From the IMG/VR virus record IMGVR_UViG_3300029922_000334, positions 1 through 20,835 of that record: 20,835 nucleotides of DNA. One strand, 5' to 3'. The notes under the pieces are model-generated. The model was not told the origin of the DNA, did no database searches, and saw nothing but the letters and a program-made list of their open reading frames with translations. The DNA is from a virus. Of the stretch, positions 1 through 20,008 are shown in pieces. The first letter of the stretch is position 1, and the number at the start of each line of letters is the position of its first letter. The translations under genes were made by a program, and so were the position numbers.

Positions 1-855
1 ATTATCAATAAAGAATGACGCCCCATTAGAAAGTGTAGTGGCATTAGGTAGTACACAAATCTGAGTTAATGTACCAGTAAAAATTATATAATTAGTAGCT
101 GATCCACTTAATGTAGTTGTACTTCCAGCTGTAGCTACTGAAGAAAACCCTAACACACCATAAGATGCTGTCGTTTGATAAGGTCCACCAGGCAAATCAC
201 CAGACGCTGCAATACTAGGAACACCAGTACCAGTAGTGTTTTTAAGTATACCGGTAGCAAGACCTGCTAATGAAGTACCGTTAATCTTTGCTACTGTAGG
301 ACCTGGATAACTACCTGATAAATCACCAGAAGCAGAGGCAGTAGCACCTAAATATGGCCCACCAGGCAAATCACCAGACGCTGCAATACTAGGAACACCA
401 GTACCAGTAGTATTCTTTAATAACCCTGTAGCTAATCCTGCTAAAGAAGTGCCGTTAATCTTTGCTACTGTAGGACCTGGATAACTACCTGATAAATCAC
501 CGCTAGCAGAACCATTAGGAGGTAACGTAGTAGGAATTGCATTTTCAATATCTGTAACTACCTTTTTAGTAACAGTATTGGCTATTTGGTATCCTACAGC
601 AATAGATACAGCAGATGTTCCTTCTTGTGCTCTAGTTATAGTAAATGTATCAGTGGCAACTGCAGTAACCCTAATAATCTCAGCATTAACTGTAGTAGGT
701 ATAACACCTGAAGGCCAGACAGTGCAATTAAATGGGGGAGTAGGAAATAATGCACCCTGACCAGTAGTTACAGTTAGTGAAGTACCAGAAGTAGGTGGTG
801 ATGGAGCAGTGGCTACTTGTGATATTGCTAGATTTGAATGGGCATCAAAAGCCAT
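1..855 (-). CDS. Tail-fibre protein, N-terminal 285 residues (runs off left edge)
   Basis: The start is ATG at 855-853; the frame stays open for 285 codons to base 1, so the C-terminus is missing. The first ~85 residues (GTSLTVTTGQG..., then FTITRAQEGTSA) resemble the N-terminal domain of many phage tail-fibre proteins. Next come two near-identical 58-residue modules containing GDLSGSYPGPTVAKINGTS and NTTGTGVPSIAASGDLPGG, a repeat style common in fibre shafts. The composition is rich in Ser, Thr, Gly and Ala with no membrane segment. It begins 3 nt after the TAA of the upstream gene and is probably co-transcribed with it. The fibre assignment rests on composition and repeats. The receptor-binding tip would lie outside the window. 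Confidence 0.75.
   Translation of the reverse strand, partial: MAFDAHSNLAISQVATAPSPPTSGTSLTVTTGQGALFPTPPFNCTVWPSGVIPTTVNAEIIRVTAVATDTFTITRAQEGTSAVSIAVGYQIANTVTKKVVTDIENAIPTTLPPNGSASGDLSGSYPGPTVAKINGTSLAGLATGLLKNTTGTGVPSIAASGDLPGGPYLGATASASGDLSGSYPGPTVAKINGTSLAGLATGILKNTTGTGVPSIAASGDLPGGPYQTTASYGVLGFSSVATAGSTTTLSGSATNYIIFTGTLTQICVLPNATTLSNGASFFIDN
182..512. repeat. Direct repeat, two copies at 174-bp spacing, inside the fibre gene
   Basis: Copy A runs from about 182 to 338 and copy B from about 356 to 512. They share long identical stretches (for example CACCAGACGCTGCAATACTA and CTTTGCTACTGTAGGACCTG). The 174-bp offset equals 58 codons, so the repeat preserves frame and encodes a duplicated fibre-shaft module. 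The near-identity suggests recent duplication or gene conversion. Confidence 0.85.
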
Positions 856-858
856 ATA

Positions 859-1452
859 TTACATGCTAGTACTATATGATACTTGAATTGTATCACCAGG
901 GTTAACAATCTTATCACCACCTGAGAATAGACCAGCAGACCAAAGAGTACCTGAAGTATTAGCAATAGTGGACGAAGCACCAGAGCCAAAGATAATAAAA
1001 CATCCTTTAACTGTACCACCAGTAGTGATAATAGGAAAACTTAGAGCTGCGGAAAGTGAAATCGAACCAGCAGAAGCAGCAGACCAGGCACAAGTTTTTC
1101 TAGGAGTAGTGTATAATGGATAATTAGTGCTGGAACCTGCTTCCTTCCAACCATTAGTACCATTAATTTGAGCAGCTGTATCACCAGCAGCTACGGTAGA
1201 ATAAGATACTGAACTAATTAAACCCATATAAGGCCCAGTAACAGTATAAGCAGAGCCGTTTAAAAATGTATTAAAAGCCAGGTTTTTACCTTCAGTATTA
1301 ACTACATTATCTATAGTATCTTCCCAAATTAAATTATTATTAGAGTCTATACATCTAGCAGTATAAACACCATGAGCTTCACAAGTTTCAGTGTGTTGGG
1401 CTCCTCTTAAAACAGTACAAGAATTATAATCAATCGCATTAGATGTTTCCAT
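859..1452 (-). CDS. Conserved phage tail/fibre-associated structural protein (197 aa)
   Basis: It begins METSNAIDYN and ends in TAA at 859-861. The order of motifs fits a family seen in many tailed phages: HGVYTARCID (residues ~27-36), WEDTIDNVVNTEGKN, then YMGLISSVSYS, a middle segment with T-G-G-T-V-K-G-C-F, and near the C-terminus SAGLFSGGDKIV followed by GDTIQVSYS. Members are usually annotated as hypothetical or tail-fibre proteins and sit beside fibre genes, as here. It is predicted to be soluble and beta-rich, with no signal peptide. I recognise the family by its motifs but cannot give it a firm name; a role in the fibre or baseplate is inferred from context. Confidence 0.7.
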   Translation of the reverse strand: METSNAIDYNSCTVLRGAQHTETCEAHGVYTARCIDSNNNLIWEDTIDNVVNTEGKNLAFNTFLNGSAYTVTGPYMGLISSVSYSTVAAGDTAAQINGTNGWKEAGSSTNYPLYTTPRKTCAWSAASAGSISLSAALSFPIITTGGTVKGCFIIFGSGASSTIANTSGTLWSAGLFSGGDKIVNPGDTIQVSYSTSM

Positions 1453-1494
1453 AATTCCAACTCTAACACAAACTTGATATACCAGTCAATTCAA

Positions 1495-4389
1495 TTAAGT
1501 TATTAGCGATATTAAAGCTGAAGTATCGGTAACAAATGCTGCACATATAGGAGATTGTACTACTTGACCTTGAGATACACTATTAGTAGAAGCAATAGCT
1601 AATGCTTGAACATCAACTCTTTCACTACATTGATATACTAAGGCATCACTTGTAAATATGGGCCAAAGAACTTGATTAGTTGTACCAGTATTATAAGTTG
1701 CAAATGGACTAAATACACTACTTCTAATACATCCTAAAGTTACAGCTACGGTTCCAGCAGTACTAGCTATTCTATTAATAGATACACTATATATCCACCA
1801 ACCATAAGCTTTTCCTTTAGCTGGTGTATCAGTAGGACCTACTTGATGCCAACCTTGATCAAAGCTAGGAGAATTATAAGTATTATATTGCCACTGATCA
1901 TAAGCTCCCCAAATAGTATTACCGCTAGTAAGTGTAGGGGGCATCATTCTAGGAATTGTCTCACTATACCAATAAACAGGGTATCTAGGAAGTGGTGGGA
2001 TTCTATGTTGGCCTGGTTGGAAAGCTTGATAACGAGAAGTAAATTTCCAGGTTATAGTATTATCAGTTACTGTACCTCCTAAAGTTCCAGGCCAGGCAGG
2101 TGCTGATGAATTACTAGTACCGGTATTTTGAGCAGTTTCAATATTACCGTTAGAATCTATTATAGTTTGTCCTGATTGAAATACTGTACTAGCTATCCAA
2201 GTAGTAGCCGGTGCAGTAAATACTTTAGAACAATGCCATACCACTCCATTATCAGTAGTAGATCCACCAAATGCCCCAGACCAAACTGGATGTGAACCGC
2301 CAGATATACCACCTGTAAATACTGTTTGATAATTACCGTTAGAATCTATAATTGTAAATCCAGACGTAAAATATATAGAAGCAGCCCAACTAGGAGGCTC
2401 GGATTGACTTTCTACTGGACTGAGTTGATTATATGAGTTAGATACTTGAGCATAAGCACCAAACATACCTGAACCGTTAGGAGCCAAATCACCTTGTAGC
2501 ATTGGATTTACTGTAGCATTACCGGCTACTGCATATTTAGTTCTAGTTAAATTCCAAGGCATTGAAGTTAAACTAGGAATAGCTAAACTACTAATAGCAG
2601 GTGACATTGAAGACCAAAATCCAGCCTTACTAGTACCAATACTCCAACCATTACCAAATATTTTTTCCGGATCATATGTAATAGCAGGAAATGTAGGGCC
2701 AGCTCCAGAATTCCAATTATTATTAGGTATATCCTGCACAAATAATAATCCTGGGCCGTGAGAAAGTCCATCACCAGGTAAGTTTATCTTTTTAATTGGC
2801 CATGCATTATCAATTCCATAAGCTGTAACTGCTGTACTATAACTAATACTGGCTGTGACAGGGCCAAATAATTTTCCATTGCCGCCGCTGCCATCATCTA
2901 GTGGGTTAGTGCCATTTGGGAAAAGGCGTGTATATGTGGTCTGTGTACCGGTTATAGGAACTGATGTGTCATCCGGTAATTGTGGTATGTCCACCTCAAG
3001 TTCATACCGCCCCGGTGCTAGAGTCGCGCTCACCGCTATTGAAATTTCGACAATCCCAATACTACAAAATCCTGTATCAGCCACCAATGTAGAATAAGAA
3101 ACTGAACCAGGAAATGCATTATAACCACCACTAGGAGATAGATTTACAGACCAAAGCGTATTAGGGTCAACTGTATCGGGTGTAATGGTTGTGGTTGGTC
3201 CAGGGTATGTTATCACAGCAGTCCCTCCACGCACATACTCCGCAGTTATATGGAAGGTCCCACTAACAAAGAGAGAATCAACACCACCAACCACAAAGGC
3301 TTGTCGTTGCTTTGTTGTTACTGGATAATAGTATGGTGATGGTGGAAACGTTGACAAAAGCATACTGCAAACGGCATTAGTTCTTAAACCTGCAGAAAAA
3401 GGTGCACCACTACCAGGGAAATTACTACTAATTGTAACTGTTGCTCCACCACCAGTATCTTCAAAATAAAACCAGGTACTTGCATAATTATCATTTGGTC
3501 CACCTACAGGCCAGGGTCCAGAAACACACAATAATGAAGGTGAAGTAACATTCATAAATGTAAAAGAATCATCCAAATCCTTCAACCCCCAAATAGCACT
3601 ACGAAGTCTATTTAGTTCAGCTAGCCAAGTAGGTCTTTGAGGAACTATAAACAAACCACCAAAAGTTGCCCCACTACCGGTTCCACCACTAGCAGCTAAA
3701 TATTGTGGAGTATTAGATAAGTATTGAAGAAATCCTATATAAGTAGTATTAGGTAATGTGAATGTTAATATCTTGCCACTACCATCAACACTTACAACAT
3801 GTACTGGAACTGGACTGCCACCAACTATCTTAGCTCCAGGCAAAGTTAAATTATCGCCAGCAGTATAACCAGTACCTCCAAAACAAAGATAAAAATCGGT
3901 AAAATAACCATTACCAGGATTATAGTCTGGAAATGAATAATTTTGAGAAGGGCCTACTTGACTAACAGTAAAAGTAATAGTAGCTCCAGTACCAGAACCA
4001 GTTACTGTATTAAGTGCGCCAGGAGTAGGGTCTGTATATGAAGGGAATGGAGGTGTGGTAGTCAGATCACCGGAAGGAGAAAAGGCAGAATTAGTATAAG
4101 TTACCAATCCTATAATAGCTCCAGTAATATCTACTGAACCAACTTCAAAATATGTAGTATAGCCTGGGGAAACTACTATATCTCCAACAGCATAACCACT
4201 TCCTCTAGCAGTTAAAGCAAAAGCACCACAAATACGATAACCATATGGATTACTACTTAAGTCATAAAACATTGGATACACATAATAAAATGTACTCAAG
4301 TCAAAACTAGTAGATGAGACTGCATTAGCTTGAGTTGCTAATGCTTGTAAATCAGTTAATTTAAAGTTATTACCAGGAGCTACAGACAT
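1495..4389 (-). CDS. Large tail spike/fibre protein (964 aa)
   Basis: A very long, Gly/Ser/Thr/Pro-rich frame starting MSVAPGNNFK and ending in TAA. Residues ~60-250 hold two copies of a phage repeat with G-x-G-Y-x-x-G-D and a later GSGTGAT element (GSGYAVGDIVV; GGTGYTAGDNLTL). Residues ~665-800 hold two tandem modules with the core G-x-x-I-I-D-S-N-G-N and a closing T-D-N-x-x-x-W, also found in the next gene. The C-terminal ~150 residues (PRYPVYWYSE onward) are Trp/Tyr-rich and might form a receptor-binding head. A central stretch (plus-strand 2860-3300) is richer in G+C than the rest, suggesting a swapped domain. No enzymatic motif was recognised. It is separated by 3 nt from the gene upstream. 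A spike or fibre role is inferred from composition, repeats and neighbours. Confidence 0.7.
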   Translation of the reverse strand: MSVAPGNNFKLTDLQALATQANAVSSTSFDLSTFYYVYPMFYDLSSNPYGYRICGAFALTARGSGYAVGDIVVSPGYTTYFEVGSVDITGAIIGLVTYTNSAFSPSGDLTTTPPFPSYTDPTPGALNTVTGSGTGATITFTVSQVGPSQNYSFPDYNPGNGYFTDFYLCFGGTGYTAGDNLTLPGAKIVGGSPVPVHVVSVDGSGKILTFTLPNTTYIGFLQYLSNTPQYLAASGGTGSGATFGGLFIVPQRPTWLAELNRLRSAIWGLKDLDDSFTFMNVTSPSLLCVSGPWPVGGPNDNYASTWFYFEDTGGGATVTISSNFPGSGAPFSAGLRTNAVCSMLLSTFPPSPYYYPVTTKQRQAFVVGGVDSLFVSGTFHITAEYVRGGTAVITYPGPTTTITPDTVDPNTLWSVNLSPSGGYNAFPGSVSYSTLVADTGFCSIGIVEISIAVSATLAPGRYELEVDIPQLPDDTSVPITGTQTTYTRLFPNGTNPLDDGSGGNGKLFGPVTASISYSTAVTAYGIDNAWPIKKINLPGDGLSHGPGLLFVQDIPNNNWNSGAGPTFPAITYDPEKIFGNGWSIGTSKAGFWSSMSPAISSLAIPSLTSMPWNLTRTKYAVAGNATVNPMLQGDLAPNGSGMFGAYAQVSNSYNQLSPVESQSEPPSWAASIYFTSGFTIIDSNGNYQTVFTGGISGGSHPVWSGAFGGSTTDNGVVWHCSKVFTAPATTWIASTVFQSGQTIIDSNGNIETAQNTGTSNSSAPAWPGTLGGTVTDNTITWKFTSRYQAFQPGQHRIPPLPRYPVYWYSETIPRMMPPTLTSGNTIWGAYDQWQYNTYNSPSFDQGWHQVGPTDTPAKGKAYGWWIYSVSINRIASTAGTVAVTLGCIRSSVFSPFATYNTGTTNQVLWPIFTSDALVYQCSERVDVQALAIASTNSVSQGQVVQSPICAAFVTDTSALISLIT

Positions 4390-4392
4390 AAT

Positions 4393-6213
4393 TTATAACC
4401 AGGTAGCATAAGAACAGGCTTGAAACCAGCCAGTACCAGTATCAGGACTATTAGTATTAGAATTTATTAAACATATATACATACCAGACGAAGTACCTGC
4501 CCCTAATACTGCAACATCATTAAGATTATAAGTAGATAATGCACTCCAAACTCCTCGATAATTAAGCCCGGAACCAGCTGGACTTATTGTAATTGTAGCA
4601 CTGGAAGTAGTACCACTTAAAGTACCACCTACAAAAGTAAGCATCTGTGCCCCATTTAATGTAGTAGTGCCATCAGTTAACTTAGTTCCAGTTACGGTAG
4701 CTGCCCCACTAGTACCTCCAACTGTCATTCCATTAAAAGTAATATTAGATACATTACTTAAACTTGTAGTACCATCAGTTATTCCTAAACTTGAAGCACT
4801 GCTAAATGAAAATGAACCAGAAGGAGTTATACCACAAGTAGTAGGAGTTACAGTTAAATAGCTGCTAGTAGTAGGAGAACCACTAGAAATAGATAATGTA
4901 GTAGTTCCACCTGAAGTAGAAGAATTTAAATACCAATTAACAAAATTACCAGGAGCACAACCAGGAACTATTAGATTACCTAGATTTGATAATCCTAAAC
5001 AAGCTGAGGGGGTTATTTGAAAAGGTGTATTTCCTCCACCAGTCTGACTAACTGTATTTCCTAATACATCCTTTACACTAGTTACTGAAACTGCGTTTGC
5101 TGTATAACCTGAAGCACATTTTAAAGCCGGGAAACTTATATTAGTAATACCAAAATTTAAATTACAAGAACTAATAGATAACGCAATAGTTGGATCACCT
5201 ACTGGAGCACTATAACCTATATCACCAGGGAATAAAAAGGTAGCTGTCCCACTACCTCCTACACTTAAACCTGATGGACAAACAATACCTAATTCAAGAT
5301 TACCTAACAATACTGAACCGCAATCTTTGGTAGTAGGGGGAATTCCATGTATTAATCTATAATAATCATACTGACTTAAAACATCAACATAAGCATAGTT
5401 ACTTATTGATGCTTGAGACATGGTCCAGGTAACATTATGATCTACAGTAGTACCAGATATAGCCCAGGTAGGAGCAGTTACACCGGATGTACCATCACCA
5501 GTAATAGCAGTGACTGTTTGTAGATTTCCATTAGTATCAATTATGCTCTGTCCTATAGAATAAACCCTTGAATATAAATATGTTATTACTGGTGGTAGAG
5601 CTGTACTATTATTTAGATTTACCGTTACATTGCTCTGAAATGAAATACCAGCTGCGCAATTAGGGGTTGGTAGATTTATTATAGTATCAATATTCCAGGT
5701 ACAAGGCTGGGTTATATCTCCACTAATTCTAGTAGTGCTTAATGAAAAATCATCTGCAATTGGAGAACCATCACCAACCATCTTAAACTGTAAAACTCCA
5801 CTAAATAAAGGACCAGTAGGATAGCAAGGTATAATTAGTGTAGGTGGGATGTCTAAATTAAAATGACAAACATCAACTCCTGGAGTTATACCTACAGTAA
5901 TAGAAGTATAAGGAATCATTCCAGAAGTATTTAATATCCCTATAGCTTGAGTATTAGGAGTAAATGAAATACCTGAAGGGCAATTCTCAGGTAATGGAAA
6001 GGGTTCTGGTACTAATGGAAATTGTACGAATAAAGGTACACAAGCTTTTACATTAGATGGTGGTGTGACTGCTCCGATAGTAGGAGGTGTGAGCAATGCT
6101 GGTAAAGTACATCCAGAACTAGGAATACTACTAGACGGTTGTGGTATATACTGTGCTTGATGATTAGTAGAATTAGTTACCTCAATCAAGCTATCTATGA
6201 AACTATTACTCAT
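4393..6213 (-). CDS. Tail-fibre/adhesin-like protein with Cys-bearing repeats and C-terminal carbohydrate-binding-like module (606 aa)
   Basis: The ATG overlaps the upstream stop (ATGA at 6210-6213). The first ~430 residues contain several diverged repeats, each bringing a Cys-x-x-Gly element after a short hydrophobic strand (CPSGISF, CAAGISF, CPSGLSV, CASGYTA, CAPGNFV). Residues ~209-268 carry one copy of the I-I-D-T-N-G-N-L-Q-T module shared with the 964-aa protein. Residues ~475-545 hold two copies of a D-G-T-T-S/T-L...F-x-G module common in phage fibres. The last ~58 residues (YRGVWSALSTYNLNDVAVLG..., Y-I-C, then W-F) resemble small CBM5/12-type chitin/carbohydrate-binding modules. The likely role is host surface binding; the ligand cannot be read from the sequence. 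Confidence 0.7.
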   Translation of the reverse strand: MSNSFIDSLIEVTNSTNHQAQYIPQPSSSIPSSGCTLPALLTPPTIGAVTPPSNVKACVPLFVQFPLVPEPFPLPENCPSGISFTPNTQAIGILNTSGMIPYTSITVGITPGVDVCHFNLDIPPTLIIPCYPTGPLFSGVLQFKMVGDGSPIADDFSLSTTRISGDITQPCTWNIDTIINLPTPNCAAGISFQSNVTVNLNNSTALPPVITYLYSRVYSIGQSIIDTNGNLQTVTAITGDGTSGVTAPTWAISGTTVDHNVTWTMSQASISNYAYVDVLSQYDYYRLIHGIPPTTKDCGSVLLGNLELGIVCPSGLSVGGSGTATFLFPGDIGYSAPVGDPTIALSISSCNLNFGITNISFPALKCASGYTANAVSVTSVKDVLGNTVSQTGGGNTPFQITPSACLGLSNLGNLIVPGCAPGNFVNWYLNSSTSGGTTTLSISSGSPTTSSYLTVTPTTCGITPSGSFSFSSASSLGITDGTTSLSNVSNITFNGMTVGGTSGAATVTGTKLTDGTTTLNGAQMLTFVGGTLSGTTSSATITISPAGSGLNYRGVWSALSTYNLNDVAVLGAGTSSGMYICLINSNTNSPDTGTGWFQACSYATWL

Positions 6214-6590
6214 TTATTCATTAGTTTAACCAAAATATAGTACATTAGCAAACTAAAGTAAGCTGCTATAAATATACTTACAGGAATAAATATTAAAGGA
6301 AAATCTATAAATACGATAATAGGAATATGTAATAGTATAGATAACCAGACTACTATACATTTGGGACAACTAATAATTTTTACAAGGAAGTTAGACCGAT
6401 TAGCAGCTAAATATTCTAGATAAGACAAACTAGGGTCATCTACAGTAATATTATTGTATTCTTCTATATAAAAGAACTTAGTCAATCTTAGTAAATTCAT
6501 ATATTCAACAAAAGTATTATTAAACCATATAACTAAAAACATGGCTATACTTGCACTTAATAATAGGTATGAAATTAAAATATCAATCAT
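6210..6590 (-). CDS. Integral membrane protein with CPxC motif (126 aa, DUF1360-like)
   Basis: There is a hydrophobic segment at residues ~3-24 and two more at ~78-97 and ~100-122. The hydrophilic middle (EEYNNITVDDPSLSYLEYLA) is followed by SCPKCIVVW at ~73-81. A C-P-x-C motif three residues before a Trp at the start of a membrane segment resembles DUF1360-type proteins of phages and Firmicutes, but the match is by eye. It sits just after a terminator-like hairpin and is translationally coupled through ATGA to the 606-aa fibre gene. Function is unknown; lysis or membrane modification are possible but unsupported. Confidence 0.6.
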   Translation of the reverse strand: MIDILISYLLLSASIAMFLVIWFNNTFVEYMNLLRLTKFFYIEEYNNITVDDPSLSYLEYLAANRSNFLVKIISCPKCIVVWLSILLHIPIIVFIDFPLIFIPVSIFIAAYFSLLMYYILVKLMNK

Positions 6591-6600
6591 ATAAATAAAA

Positions 6601-8409: not shown

Positions 8410-9108
8410 ATGCGCTATAATATTGACAGCGTGGTAGCTAATGTGTACTGTCATTATATGGATTTAACTAATATAACAGCAGAGACAGCATATACGTTAG
8501 GATTTATCTGGGCCGACGGGTCTATATCTAAAGAAAATAAAATTAAAATAGCTATAAAACAAGTTGATGCAGTAATTATTGAACCAACACTTATGAAAGC
8601 CTGGAATTGGAATATACGTAGAAATATACAAAAAACAAATCCACCAGGGCAATTACAAATGAGTTTTCAAAAAGGTAGTGTAGAATTAGCAACTAAATTA
8701 ATTAGTTACAATTATAGAAGTAAAGATCAAGCTCCTACAATATTAAGCATTATACCTGAAAACCTAACTCATTACTGGTGGAGGGGTTACAGTGATGGGG
8801 ATGGTTGTTTTTGTATATCCAGAGATGGTCATTGTTCTTATAGTATTTGTGGTCCCTACACTCAAGATTGGTCTGCTTTTGAGAAATTAGTATTACCTAT
8901 GGAGATTCATTATAGAATAGGGAGGGAGATTAATAAAAAAACTGGACATAAGGGTTCTAGAATAGTTATACCTAGCATTTGTGGTGGTTATAAATTCGGT
9001 AACTATATTTATCAAGGCTTTCTAGAAGACAGAATTGGACTGACTAGAAAGTATGAGAAATATCTACAATTCAACTTACCAAGAAATGAAAGAAGAAGGC
9101 CTGCTTAA
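8410..9108 (+). CDS. Free-standing LAGLIDADG homing endonuclease
   Basis: It contains two LAGLIDADG motifs: TLGFIWADG at residues ~29-37 and WRGYSDGDG at ~124-132. The last Asp of each (D36, D131) is the expected catalytic residue. The 232-aa length fits a monomeric two-motif enzyme. Such enzymes cut a specific site and copy their own gene into alleles lacking it. The ATG at 8458 (MDLTNITAET) is an alternative start. It is encoded opposite to all neighbouring genes and its TAA overlaps the convergent TAA of the XhlA-like gene by 2 nt, as expected of an inserted selfish element. No intron or intein boundaries are visible, so I call it free-standing. Confidence 0.85.
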   Translation: MRYNIDSVVANVYCHYMDLTNITAETAYTLGFIWADGSISKENKIKIAIKQVDAVIIEPTLMKAWNWNIRRNIQKTNPPGQLQMSFQKGSVELATKLISYNYRSKDQAPTILSIIPENLTHYWWRGYSDGDGCFCISRDGHCSYSICGPYTQDWSAFEKLVLPMEIHYRIGREINKKTGHKGSRIVIPSICGGYKFGNYIYQGFLEDRIGLTRKYEKYLQFNLPRNERRRPA

Positions 9109-16763: not shown

Positions 16764-17159
16764 TTATAGTTCAAGTTCTAGCCTTCTATCATTAATATTC
16801 AGTTCTGGTCTAGTATCATTTTGAATTATTTTAGGTCTGGGCGATGGTTCACAATCTATTAAATTAGTACAATTACTGCAACTACTACACTCACTACAAG
16901 TAATACAATTAATACACGCAATACAATCACTACAATCATCACAATAACTACAATCAATACAATCTCTACAATCAATACAATTACTACAATTATAACAATC
17001 TCTACAACCATTACAACCACTACAACCACTACAAGCATTACAATCTCTACAATTATAACAATTAGTTAAGGTAGGTGAATATGTAGTAGCTGATTCTTCT
17101 GTAGACCAACTATTATCGTTTTCGTCATACCATCTATCAGCTCTTTTTGTTAGTTTCAT
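16764..17159 (-). CDS. Cys-triplet repeat protein, 22 consecutive x-x-Cys units (131 aa)
   Basis: A polar N-terminus (MKLTKRADRWYDENDNSWS) precedes residues 32-97, where every third residue is Cys without a break (C34, C37, C40 ... C97: 22 units such as YNC, RDC, SGC, IDC). Then come TNL and IDC (C103). The other two positions are mostly S, N, D, I, R and G. The C-terminal tail is charged. The perfect three-residue period gives many overlapping C-x-x-C motifs, suited to metal or iron-sulfur ligation, or to an extended helix or solenoid with one Cys face. The DNA shows the matching 9-bp period (CTACAATCA-like). I have seen similar Cys-periodic phage ORFs but know no function. It is last in its operon, with ATGA coupling to the 45-aa membrane protein. 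Confidence 0.85.
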   Translation of the reverse strand: MKLTKRADRWYDENDNSWSTEESATTYSPTLTNCYNCRDCNACSGCSGCNGCRDCYNCSNCIDCRDCIDCSYCDDCSDCIACINCITCSECSSCSNCTNLIDCEPSPRPKIIQNDTRPELNINDRRLELEL

Positions 17160-17293
17160 AAGTCATCAAAGCGTTTATTTTCAATGTCAGAATTAATATC
17201 CCTACGTCTTTTACTTTCACTTCTGATATAGGTGGACCAGAACCAATAGCTGAGCAGGGAGACTACCAGGATTAAAGGTATGAATAATCTCAT
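17156..17293 (-). CDS. Small single-pass membrane protein (45 aa)
   Basis: Start ATG at 17293-17291, stop TGA at 17156-17158. Both ends are ATGA overlaps, with the 122-aa gene upstream and the Cys-triplet gene downstream, which strongly supports translation. Residues ~3-20 (LFIPLILVVSLLSYWFW) form a membrane segment, followed by a basic then mixed-charge tail (YIRSESKRRRDIN...). The layout suggests N-out/C-in anchoring. Coupling to the Cys-triplet protein suggests the two act together, perhaps at the membrane; that is inference. Confidence 0.7.
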   Translation of the reverse strand: MRLFIPLILVVSLLSYWFWSTYIRSESKRRRDINSDIENKRFDDL

Positions 17294-17658
17294 AATTTAG
17301 GACAGATAGTATCAACGTAAATACAGTATATGCCAGGAATTGCAGCCACTACTTGATTATATAAGGATTTCAATTCATTTTCACAGTAAGTTCTATTACA
17401 GGTAATTATAGTATCGCCGTAGTGACTAGTATCAAATCCTATCCACCACAATGTTGTATCATATATATTATTAGGTAAATACGGGTTGGAATAAGTAAGC
17501 CCACCGTGAATGGAAACGTCAAGATTAGTATAATACTTACCGAACCAAGGATGTTCAGGAGGCATACCTACATAACCATTAGCATATCCACCACTTAAAC
17601 TAAGAGGTAGCTCCATAATACTGCGTTCAATCAATACTTTCTTAATCTTATCTTTCAT
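17290..17658 (-). CDS. Conserved phage protein of unknown function (122 aa)
   Basis: Motifs GYVGMPPEHPWFGKYY (~28-43), DVSIHGGLTYSNPY (~47-60), WWIGFDTSHYGDT (~71-83) and a C-terminal helix with NELKSLYNQV. The series P-x-x-H-P-W-x-G-K, D-V-x-x-H-G-G-L-T-Y and W-W-x-G-F-D-x-x-H-x-G-D recurs in many phage and some bacterial hypothetical proteins. Conserved His/Asp residues hint at metal or ligand binding, but I know no assigned activity. ATGA coupling on both sides. Family recognition is fair; function unknown. Confidence 0.7.
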   Translation of the reverse strand: MKDKIKKVLIERSIMELPLSLSGGYANGYVGMPPEHPWFGKYYTNLDVSIHGGLTYSNPYLPNNIYDTTLWWIGFDTSHYGDTIITCNRTYCENELKSLYNQVVAAIPGIYCIYVDTICPKL

Positions 17659-18825: not shown

Positions 18826-19176
18826 AAATTGCTTACTTAATAGCACCTGCCCTTGACCCTGACCATTACGATGACCCTGCCCTTGACCCTGACCCTGACC
18901 CTGACCATGACGATGACGATGACCCTGACCCTGACCCTGACCATGACCTTGTCCCTGACCATGACCTTGACCCTGACCATGACCTTGACCTTGACCCTGA
19001 CCTTGACCTTGACACTGACTCTGACCCTGACCTTGACCATGACCTTGACCCTGACCCTGACCCTGACCCTGACCCTGACCCTGACCCTAACCTTGACCCT
19101 GACCCTGACCCTGACCCTGACCCTGACCCTAACCTTGACCTTGTCCCTGACCATGACCTTGACCCTGCGTTATCAT
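18811..19176 (-). pseudogene. Poly(Gly-Gln) frame, copy 1, interrupted by two TAG codons
   Basis: From ATG at 19176 the frame reads MITQGQGHGQGQG, like copy 2, but meets TAG at 19129-19131 and again, 14 codons later, at 19087-19089. Both replace a CAG codon by a single C-to-T change. Beyond them the Gly-Gln frame stays open to GAA-TAG inside the 18785-18825 hairpin. Either this copy is decayed, or the array is not translated in this frame, or TAG is read as Gln. The first is simplest, because the long genes of the window carry no in-frame TAG. Confidence 0.4.
18847..19168. repeat. Hexanucleotide tandem array, copy 1 (CCCTGA/CCTTGA/CCATGA)
   Basis: About 320 bp of degenerate 6-bp units (minus strand GGTCAG, GGTCAA, GGTCAT, with rare GGACAA, GGGCAG). 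The G-rich strand has runs of GGG every six bases at 19044-19125. Several frames are open because the unit is a multiple of three; only the Gly-Gln frame shows mostly third-position variation. Confidence 0.9.
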
Positions 19177-19688: not shown

Positions 19689-20008
19689 ATTTTTGTTGTT
19701 GTTTGTTGTTTGTTGTTTGTTGTTTGTTGTTCGTTGGTAGAGTTGATCAGAACTTTATTATTTTTACCATGTCCCTGACCTTGACCCTGACCTTGACCTT
19801 GACCTTGACCCTGACCTTGACCTTGACCTTGACCTTGACTCTGACCATGACCTTGACCCTGACCTTGACCATGACCTTGACCCTGACCTTGACACTGACC
19901 ATGACCCTGACCTTGACCCTGACCCTGCCCTTGACCTTGACACTGACTCTGACCCTGACCTTGACCCTGACCTTGTCCCTGACCATGACCTTGACCCTGC
20001 GTTATCAT
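19685..20008 (-). CDS. Poly(Gly-Gln) repeat protein, copy 2 (107 aa)
   Basis: Starting MITQGQGHGQGQG, residues ~4-80 are G-Q dipeptides with occasional G-H, S-Q and C-Q. The C-terminus is Asn/Gln/Thr-rich (NNKVLINSTNEQQTTNNKQQ). Support for translation: most unit variants (CAG/CAA, GGT/GGA/GGG) are synonymous in this frame but not in the others, and the stop forms ATGA with the 120-aa gene. Against: a competing frame starting at 20036 (MNISLLRAQYDNAG, then Ser/Gly/Arg repeats) has the better A-rich upstream tract and is open in both copies. A low-complexity, prion-like or structural peptide is one reading; a noncoding satellite is the alternative. Confidence 0.4.
   Translation of the reverse strand: MITQGQGHGQGQGQGQGQGQSQCQGQGQGQGQGQGHGQCQGQGQGHGQGQGQGHGQSQGQGQGQGQGQGQGQGQGQGQGHGKNNKVLINSTNEQQTTNNKQQTTTKI
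19768..20000. repeat. Hexanucleotide tandem array, copy 2
   Basis: About 230 bp of the same 6-bp units as copy 1, including the shared variant block TTGACACTGACTCTGACC. Copies differ in length and unit order, as expected from slippage after duplication. Confidence 0.9.

What the first reader, a model, noticed from the sequence alone, without database searches (positions are those of the whole stretch)
16764..17159. Protein with Cys at every third residue for 22 consecutive triplets, coupled to a tiny membrane protein
The unbroken x-x-Cys period (C34 to C97) is far more regular than metallothioneins or zinc-ribbon repeats, and cannot be an accident of composition. It implies an extended or solenoid fold with a Cys face: a metal or iron-sulfur wire, a disulfide ladder, or a redox sink. 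Tight ATGA coupling to a 45-aa single-pass membrane protein suggests a two-part module at the cell envelope. The 9-bp DNA period also allows slippage-driven length variation between phages.
Basis: partly seen in the sequence, partly recalled or inferred. Interest (0 to 1): 0.8.

Follow-up and report, generated by a model that had tools for sequence, protein, structure and literature searches.

The report
Cysteine-every-third-residue phage rod proteins
A phage known from metagenome data carries a family of about fifteen related proteins in which every third amino acid is cysteine, probably narrow rods that grow, shrink and reshuffle by whole three-residue units; what they do during infection is unknown.

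Summary
Confirmed: window 16764-17159 (minus strand) encodes 131 aa with 22 cysteines at exact period 3. It is not a one-off. The window equals G001:297-21131 of a 127-kb phage record with 15 such genes; related records give 50 distinct versions with one N-cap, 12-42 array cysteines and several C-ends. Campylobacter Firehammerviruses and some bacterial genomes carry the same kind (PHROG 15341, unknown function). Cys is under protein-level selection: at one Firehammervirus locus 0 of 26 Cys codons show a replacement, 9 a silent change. Arrays change by whole 9-bp units. Best reading: a very narrow beta-solenoid with inward Cys, as in Tenebrio antifreeze protein (every third residue C/A/C/S). 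A C-terminal domain of some paralogues is shared with hexapeptide and pentapeptide solenoids, and rare non-Cys residues in register are Ser, Phe or Leu. AlphaFold2 did not resolve the array, so the fold is inferred; metal binding is not excluded; the molecular role is unknown. The coupling to the 45-aa membrane ORF is generic. Unexpected: in the G001-group arrays silent sites are nearly frozen while replacement sites vary, and unrelated neighbours share a C-terminal tail.

The parts
16764..17159 (-). xxC-array protein, 131 aa (P0001), PHROG 15341
   Evidence: ORF; phrog_15341 E=2.1e-12 over residues 12-103; 50 distinct members with the same cap, this one included
17061..17159 (-). N-cap, residues 1-33 (KRxxRWYDENxNSWxTEExATxYSPTLTN): beta-hairpin plus helix
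   Evidence: Conserved in alignments A1 and A2; pLDDT block means 84, 78, 73; strands 4-6 and 9-11, helix 21-30
16869..17060 (-). Cys-triplet array, residues 34-97, 22 Cys at period 3 (9 bp in DNA)
   Evidence: TRF period 9 at 16868-17053; pLDDT block means 42-56
16764..16868 (-). C-terminal segment, residues 98-131 and stop (ends TRPELNINDRRLELEL)
   Evidence: R125 invariant, R117, L127 and L131 nearly invariant in 34 sequences
16767..16790 (-). C-terminal tail DRRLELEL, of the type [RK]-x-[LFI]-[ED]-x(1,2)-[LFI]-COOH shared with unrelated proteins of these phages
17156..17293 (-). 45-aa hydrophobic (single-pass) ORF overlapping the array gene by 4 nt; ends in IENKRFDDL, same tail type
   Evidence: no Pfam or PADLOC match; weak phrog_28931 E=0.017

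Best explanation
P0001 is one member of a phage protein family built as N-cap, Cys-triplet array, and C-cap or C-terminal domain. The array most likely folds as a very narrow beta-solenoid: x1 (often Ser) extended, x2 (often Asp, Asn, Ser or Gly) at a turn, and every Cys pointing into the core, the arrangement seen at every third residue of Tenebrio antifreeze protein (C/A/C/S) but with Cys at all inner places. Because all triplets are equivalent, units can be gained or lost one at a time without breaking the fold; this makes a rod of adjustable length with two outward faces (x1, x2) that vary. In the G001 group the gene has multiplied to about 15 copies, and unit slippage and block exchange inside the TGT arrays keep making new faces. 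I propose that the rods are cytosolic scaffold or binding surfaces used against varied host targets, with the C-end deciding the partner. Shown: periodicity, purifying selection on Cys (in Firehammervirus locus 2), unit-wise indels, modular ends, copy number, sharing of a C-terminal domain with classical solenoids. Inferred: the fold of the array, the inward Cys, the cytosolic place, the binding role. Not known: thiol state, metals, target.
For: Every third residue of PDB 1ezg reads CACSCACSCACSCACS in the stretch printed by phmmer, which aligned P0001 34-103 with it, not significantly. The CGCF C-terminal domain (phrog_20532/7964) follows a repeat array in 23 of 24 loci examined, the 24th (L180) having no readable ORF: hexapeptide 10, pentapeptide 2, xxC 11. 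Twelve of the 23 were not chosen by repeat type: 7 opened of 10 phage records (6 hexapeptide, 1 pentapeptide) and all 5 loci (2 hexapeptide, 3 xxC). Foldseek of the domain-bearing model finds viral proteins named beta solenoid repeat, hexapeptide, polymer-forming and pentapeptide. In-register non-Cys residues in 86 arrays: 18 Ser, 4 Phe, 3 Leu (13 distinct contexts: 8 Ser, 3 Leu, 2 Phe) against 2,111 C..C steps. Firehammervirus locus 2, 6 phages: Cys codons 0 replacement and 9 silent sites of 26. Array lengths of 12-42 Cys show no common multiple. Two gene pairs differ only by one 9-bp unit. Ser at x1 uses AGT, TCT, TCG, TCC or TCA in different families, so Ser is a protein-level preference.
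Against: AlphaFold2 gave the array pLDDT block means of 38-56 in both models, so there is no structural support for the array itself. The 1ezg match is not significant (E 0.39 for the sequence, i-Evalue 24 for the stretch) and a growth-factor-receptor domain (1ssl, E 0.053) ranks above it. No coil length shows in the lag test: only lag 3 departs, and negatively, z -3.1. A mere filler would be expected to tolerate Ala or Val and more Ser; Tenebrio AFP uses Ala or Ser at half of these places, these arrays at about 1%. The host-target role rests on copy number and variability alone.
Confidence: 0.45

Rival explanations
1. Metal or iron-sulfur thiolate array: consecutive CxxCxxC sites bind zinc, copper or Fe-S clusters, as storage, sink or electron path.
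For: Cys holds about 99% of the in-register places counted (only single misses flanked by Cys on both sides are counted) and has 0 replacements against 9 silent changes in Firehammervirus locus 2. CxxCxxC is the ferredoxin cluster motif (recalled).
Against: The in-register substitutes seen are Ser, Phe, Leu; none is His, Asp or Glu. P0001 has no Pfam or NCBIfam match and no significant PDB match. The CGCF domain of some paralogues also follows classical Ala/Val/Leu-core solenoids. An array is also present in Flavobacterium phage FL-1, whose host genus is aerobic (recalled).
Confidence: 0.25
2. Recombination joint: the array is kept mainly as repeated DNA that lets these phages swap adjacent genes; the protein is a tolerated by-product.
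For: Same C-end plus same downstream gene with different arrays; silent sites nearly frozen in G001-group arrays; two pairs differing by one unit; short or frame-broken locus-1 arrays in CPt10, CP20, CJLB-12 and CJLB-14.
Against: Cys kept at protein level where Cys codons have changed silently; N-cap conserved; Ser at x1 coded by different codons in different families.
Confidence: 0.12
3. Modified peptide precursor: the triplets are substrates of a radical SAM or other enzyme, as in His-Xaa-Ser repeat proteins.
For: Sub-threshold NCBIfam HisXaaSer_A4 matches in 2 of 10 proteins (E 0.0077 and 0.00082; 17 and 20 bits against a cut-off of 55). Firehammervirus locus 2 lies three genes (F379) or four genes (IBB_35) from a radical SAM gene; CP220 and CPt10 encode 11 and 12 such proteins (PMC2853527, passages).
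Against: No Radical_SAM match in 9 of 9 G001-group records, control 14 of 14 (records may be fragments). P0001 itself has no HisXaaSer match. A predicted folded N-cap rather than a leader peptide.
Confidence: 0.07
4. Two-part envelope redox module with the 45-aa membrane protein.
For: ATGA overlap; both proteins carry the same tail type; one paralogue has its own C-terminal hydrophobic stretch.
Against: 4-nt overlaps are generic and neighbours differ from copy to copy; P0001 begins with the charged N-cap and shows no signal peptide to the eye (no predictor was run).
Confidence: 0.05

Closest known systems
PHROG 15341; Campylobacter Firehammervirus Cys-rich proteins (CP21_166; F379_061, noted as 'cysteine rich')
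   Same: Same N-cap (W/Y-x-D-x3-N-x-W ... EA/QA ... S-x-S-L or similar) and xxC array
   Different: Two or three copies per genome instead of about 15; different C-ends; arrays with varied third bases
Tenebrio molitor antifreeze protein (PDB 1EZG)
   Same: C, A or S at every third place
   Different: Nearly all such places Cys here; Thr rare; no significant sequence match (E 0.39); secreted (recalled), while P0001 shows no signal peptide to the eye
Phage hexapeptide and pentapeptide beta-solenoids with the CGCF C-terminal domain
   Same: Same C-terminal domain after a repeat array
   Different: Period 6 or 5 with Ala/Val/Leu core; other N-ends; P0001 itself lacks this domain, its paralogue L079 has it
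Ferredoxin-like or zinc CxxC motifs, metallothioneins (recalled)
   Same: CxxCxxC spacing
   Different: Period unbroken for up to 54 Cys (CP21); no His or Asp alternates seen; no family match for P0001
His-Xaa-Ser repeat protein HxsA4 (NCBIfam NF038313)
   Same: Triplet repeat
   Different: Below cut-off in 2 of 10 proteins, no match for P0001; no radical SAM match in the G001-group records

Membership tests
PHROG 15341 | Profile match | tested here: met
   E 2.1e-12, residues 12-103
PHROG 15341 | N-cap followed by period-3 Cys array, as in the phage protein that matches the whole profile | tested here: met
   CP21 ORF matches profile 1-276 at 6.5e-117; same cap and array
Tenebrio-type beta-helix | Cys, Ala or Ser at every third place | tested here: met
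Tenebrio-type beta-helix | 12-residue coil | tested here: inconclusive
   No positive lag signal, no length multiple; array unresolved in models
Tenebrio-type beta-helix | Significant sequence homology | tested here: not met
   E 0.39
CGCF-domain solenoid proteins | C-terminal CGCF domain | tested here: not met
   Absent from P0001; present in paralogue L079 (phrog_20532 E 5.9e-17)
Metal-thiolate or Fe-S proteins | Bound metal | not testable with these tools
   Needs purified protein
Metal-thiolate or Fe-S proteins | Alternate ligands (His, Asp) at ligand places | tested here: not met
   Only Ser, Phe, Leu at 25 places in 86 arrays; a small sample with repeats of the same contexts
His-Xaa-Ser type modified peptides | Radical SAM partner nearby | tested here: not met
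   0 of 9 G001-group records; Firehammervirus has one near locus 2
Diversity-generating retroelement target | Reverse transcriptase in the genome | tested here: not met
   0 of 9 records, which may be fragments; control rings in 3 of 14
Known anti-phage defence families | PADLOC match | tested here: not met
   0 of 6 proteins

The most novel reading that the evidence does not exclude
These phages keep a self-diversifying repertoire of all-cysteine solenoids: about 15 loci per genome whose 9-bp units turn over so fast that silent sites stay frozen while the exposed x1/x2 residues are selected to differ, a phage counterpart of modular repeat-shuffling receptor repertoires, with a shared C-terminal tail that sorts rods and neighbouring small proteins to one common partner.
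Probability: 0.25. Interest if true: 0.88.

Novelty: new variant of a known kind. Interest (0 to 1): 0.68.

Why it matters
An unbroken period-3 Cys array between folded ends is a repeat class for which I found no significant solved relative and no description in the listings of my paper searches (open-licence papers only). It occurs in isolated phages (11 Campylobacter phages in 17 records; Flavobacterium phage FL-1), so it can be tested now. If the solenoid reading holds it is among the simplest possible solenoids, one equivalent unit of three residues; if metal binds, it is a long continuous thiolate array. The frozen silent sites with variable replacement sites are a clear evolutionary puzzle.

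Tried and rejected
Rejected: a low-complexity or wrong-frame artefact (50 distinct members, conserved caps, selection on Cys). The Val-rich 59-aa ORF 16859-17038 (-) in another frame of the same repeat is taken as a by-product of the repeat. A DGR origin of the x1/x2 variation: no reverse transcriptase match, and x1 varies at more than A positions. Radical SAM partner in the G001 group: no match. PADLOC: none. tblastn of P0001 in 'phages' found nothing, perhaps through the low-complexity filter, since Campylobacter phages do carry the family. Fold search of the low-confidence P0001 model among viral models: nothing at E 0.001 or better (best: Campylobacter virus IBB35 protein, E 0.18). PDB fold search of the L079 model: nothing at 0.001 or better. 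Hydrophobic lag test for coil length: inconclusive. Plasmids: no match to one CGCF domain.

Of 210 ORFs, 122 passed a low-complexity filter, whose script then stopped with an error after printing; some printed rows are probably still simple-repeat DNA. The 50 members were collected by an N-cap pattern plus four Cys at period 3. The 36 'other' arrays have an N-cap recognised by pattern and were deduplicated on 60 residues; they still hold related Firehammervirus copies and one G001-group locus. One search counted 8 in-register misses and 9 slips by another walk; one search is the count used. One search match numbers count some genes twice and are not used as gene numbers. In one search, contexts without 250 nt on both sides and repeats of the same neighbours were dropped. 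In one search the first two Cys bases are fixed by the way units were found and say nothing. The tail pattern was written after seeing the tails. My notes call the G001 group 'bog'; that was a guess from contig numbers and no call supports a habitat.

Full report
1. The observation. Cysteines stand at residues 34, 37 ... 97 without a break (22) and at 103. Of 200,000 shuffles of the protein none gave a run above 9; of 200,000 of the 70-residue segment none above 12. In DNA the array is a 9-bp tandem repeat, 20.7 copies at 74%. The upstream 45-aa hydrophobic ORF overlaps by ATGA.

2. It is one of many. The window is 100% identical to G001:297-21131, a 127-kb virus record. Of ten of its large proteins scanned, five match PHROGs, among them terminase/helicase, tail sheath, ATP-dependent DNA ligase and RNA polymerase beta subunit. 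G001 has 15 ORFs with at least five Cys at period 3, 14 of them at 99-126 kb. The 16 records searched were picked because they held members, and all 16 match. I call these the G001 group. From the loci fetched I collected 50 distinct members with the same N-cap. A capped pattern found 10 stretches in bacterial genome contigs (Helicobacter sp. 10-6591, Lishizhenia, Thomasclavelia, Emergencia and others). PHROG 15341 is rare in bacteria: 6 of 392 genomes of one phylum, three of these weak (E 1e-4 to 9e-4) and not inspected; one of the six is the genome that served as centre. The Firehammervirus cap matches 17 Campylobacter phage records (11 phages) and one other; I opened 10 of the 17, and one annotator wrote 'cysteine rich'.

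3. Anatomy. The N-cap (K-R-x-x-R-W-Y-D-E-N-x-N-S-W ... S-P-T-L-T-N) is predicted as hairpin plus helix, pLDDT block means 73-84; array blocks are 42-56 in the model of P0001 and 38-54 in that of L079. C-ends come in several types that tend to travel with the downstream gene. One is a hydrophobic stretch (L145), one a 70-residue domain that I call CGCF (L079; phrog_20532 E 5.9e-17). By eye, 47 of 50 members end in [RK]-x-[LFI]-[ED]-x(1,2)-[LFI].

4. Selection on Cys. In Firehammervirus locus 2 (6 phages, 141 aa each) the 26 Cys columns show 9 silent and no replacement sites; the other array columns 7 and 7 of 56; the caps 16 silent and 15 replacement of 59. Long Firehammervirus locus-1 arrays, whose third codon bases vary freely, still run for 40-54 Cys without a miss. 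So the period is kept for the protein and is not just a fresh DNA repeat. Ser at x1 is coded AGT in the G001 group and in L108, and TCT, TCG, TCC or TCA elsewhere, again a protein-level preference.

5. Change by units. Two gene pairs are identical apart from exactly one 9-bp unit. Others share both ends and differ by blocks in the middle. Firehammervirus locus 1, annotated between portal and DNA ligase genes in 6 of the 8 phages opened there, holds 55, 69, 69, 98, 123, 231 or 240 aa, or 172 plus 284 aa; four are short or frame-broken. Array length has no preferred multiple, so each triplet seems structurally equivalent.

6. What the array probably is. Three lines point to a narrow beta-solenoid. 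First, Tenebrio antifreeze protein, second in the PDB search but not significant (E 0.39; stretch i-Evalue 24), has C/A/C/S at every third place. Second, of 24 loci with the CGCF domain, one (L180) has no readable ORF and the other 23 have a repeat array before it: hexapeptide 10, pentapeptide 2, xxC 11 (pattern counts, low for L239, L243 and L246). Eight of these were picked for their xxC arrays and three (L278-L280) for their names. The other 12 were not: 7 phage records opened of 10 hits (6 hexapeptide, 1 pentapeptide), and the 5 loci (2 hexapeptide, 3 xxC). Foldseek of the L079 model against viral models gives the same company: six at E 0.001 or better, among them a 'beta solenoid repeat protein' and a hexapeptide protein, then polymer-forming and pentapeptide proteins. 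Third, when one Cys is missing in register the residue is Ser (18), Phe (4) or Leu (3), never His or Asp. Against: no confident model, no coil period, and a stricter Cys than a mere filler needs. Metal binding therefore stays open.

7. The membrane partner. In 51 contexts of G001-group genes the upstream ORF overlaps by 4 nt in 28 (8 had no ORF found, 15 other spacings) and the downstream one in 42 (2 none, 7 other). Orthologous contexts recur and some neighbours are themselves xxC genes, but many different genes take part. The coupling is a habit of these operons.

8. Two unexpected features. (a) Frozen silent sites: for Asp, Asn, Tyr, Cys, His, Phe and AGY-Ser codons, T-ending versus C-ending is 2813 to 38 in G001-group arrays, 720 to 295 in the caps of the same proteins, 6223 to 1635 in G001 genes of 150 aa or more. 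Four close pairs show 35 replacement and 0 silent differences at x places (2 silent at Cys) against 15 and 10 in the caps (Fisher p 4e-5, but block exchange makes the changes non-independent). In seven other arrays (L026, two of L045, L061, L110, L124, L126) no third base varies at all, while first or second bases of x1 or x2 do; in the four L057 arrays, L052 and the Firehammervirus arrays third bases do vary. Fast unit turnover plus selection for varied faces would do this; codon or RNA constraints could contribute. (b) The tail: in G001, G005, G007 and G008 (the last three nearly or wholly covered) it ends 13 of 15, 12 of 12, 9 of 9 and 11 of 11 xxC proteins, and 5, 13, 13 and 4 non-Cys proteins where 0.14, 0.13, 0.11 and 0.02 are expected from internal occurrences; the 33 distinct non-Cys sequences fall into 19 clusters once the last 9 residues are removed (pattern written post hoc; the window's 45-aa ORF is one). 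Several use TAA without overlap, so gene coupling alone does not explain it.

9. Literature. PMC2853527 (passages) describes CP220 and CPt10 with 11 and 12 radical SAM proteins and variable-length, mostly extragenic repeats; one search counts no 'cysteine' in it or in PMC3322345 (passages). The listings of searches showed no description of an unbroken xxC phage protein; longer lists were shown only in part, and the library holds open-licence papers only.

10. Verdict. Real, well beyond chance, one member of a PHROG of unknown function, most likely an all-Cys solenoid with unit-wise evolution; function open.

Noticed in passing
window 18846-19167 and 19773-19996: Two long hexamer tandem arrays (CCTGAC, 53.7 copies at 84%; TGACCT, 36.8 copies at 82%), the two regions about 90% alike over 328 bp.
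   Followed up: no
G001, G005, G007, G008 (L219-L230): C-terminal tail [RK]-x-[LFI]-[ED]-x(1,2)-[LFI] on 33 distinct non-Cys sequences in 19 clusters, many of them next to xxC genes.
   Followed up: partly
window 8410-9108 (+): Homing-endonuclease-like ORF: phrog_4645 E 1.5e-20, weak Pfam LAGLIDADG_3 E 0.006, below cut-off.
   Followed up: no
window 17290-17658 (-): Neighbour matching phrog_2164 (E 9.7e-19) and weakly a MazG-like pyrophosphatase family (E 4.4e-4); Firehammervirus locus 2 also lies beside a putative pyrophosphorylase.
   Followed up: no
L041, L108, L110, L114, L120, L124, L127: xxC arrays fused to a W-H-x-C-containing, HCRAGW-type domain, seen by eye (L110, L120, L124, L114, L127 too); phrog_31265, unknown function, matched in L041 and L108.
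   Followed up: no
L244 2009-2713 (Flavobacterium phage FL-1): In the deposited record the array is annotated in another frame, and the reading frame shifts before the HCRAGW-type domain.
   Followed up: no
window 178-501: 174-bp repeat, 1.9 copies, 91%, near the start of the window.
   Followed up: no
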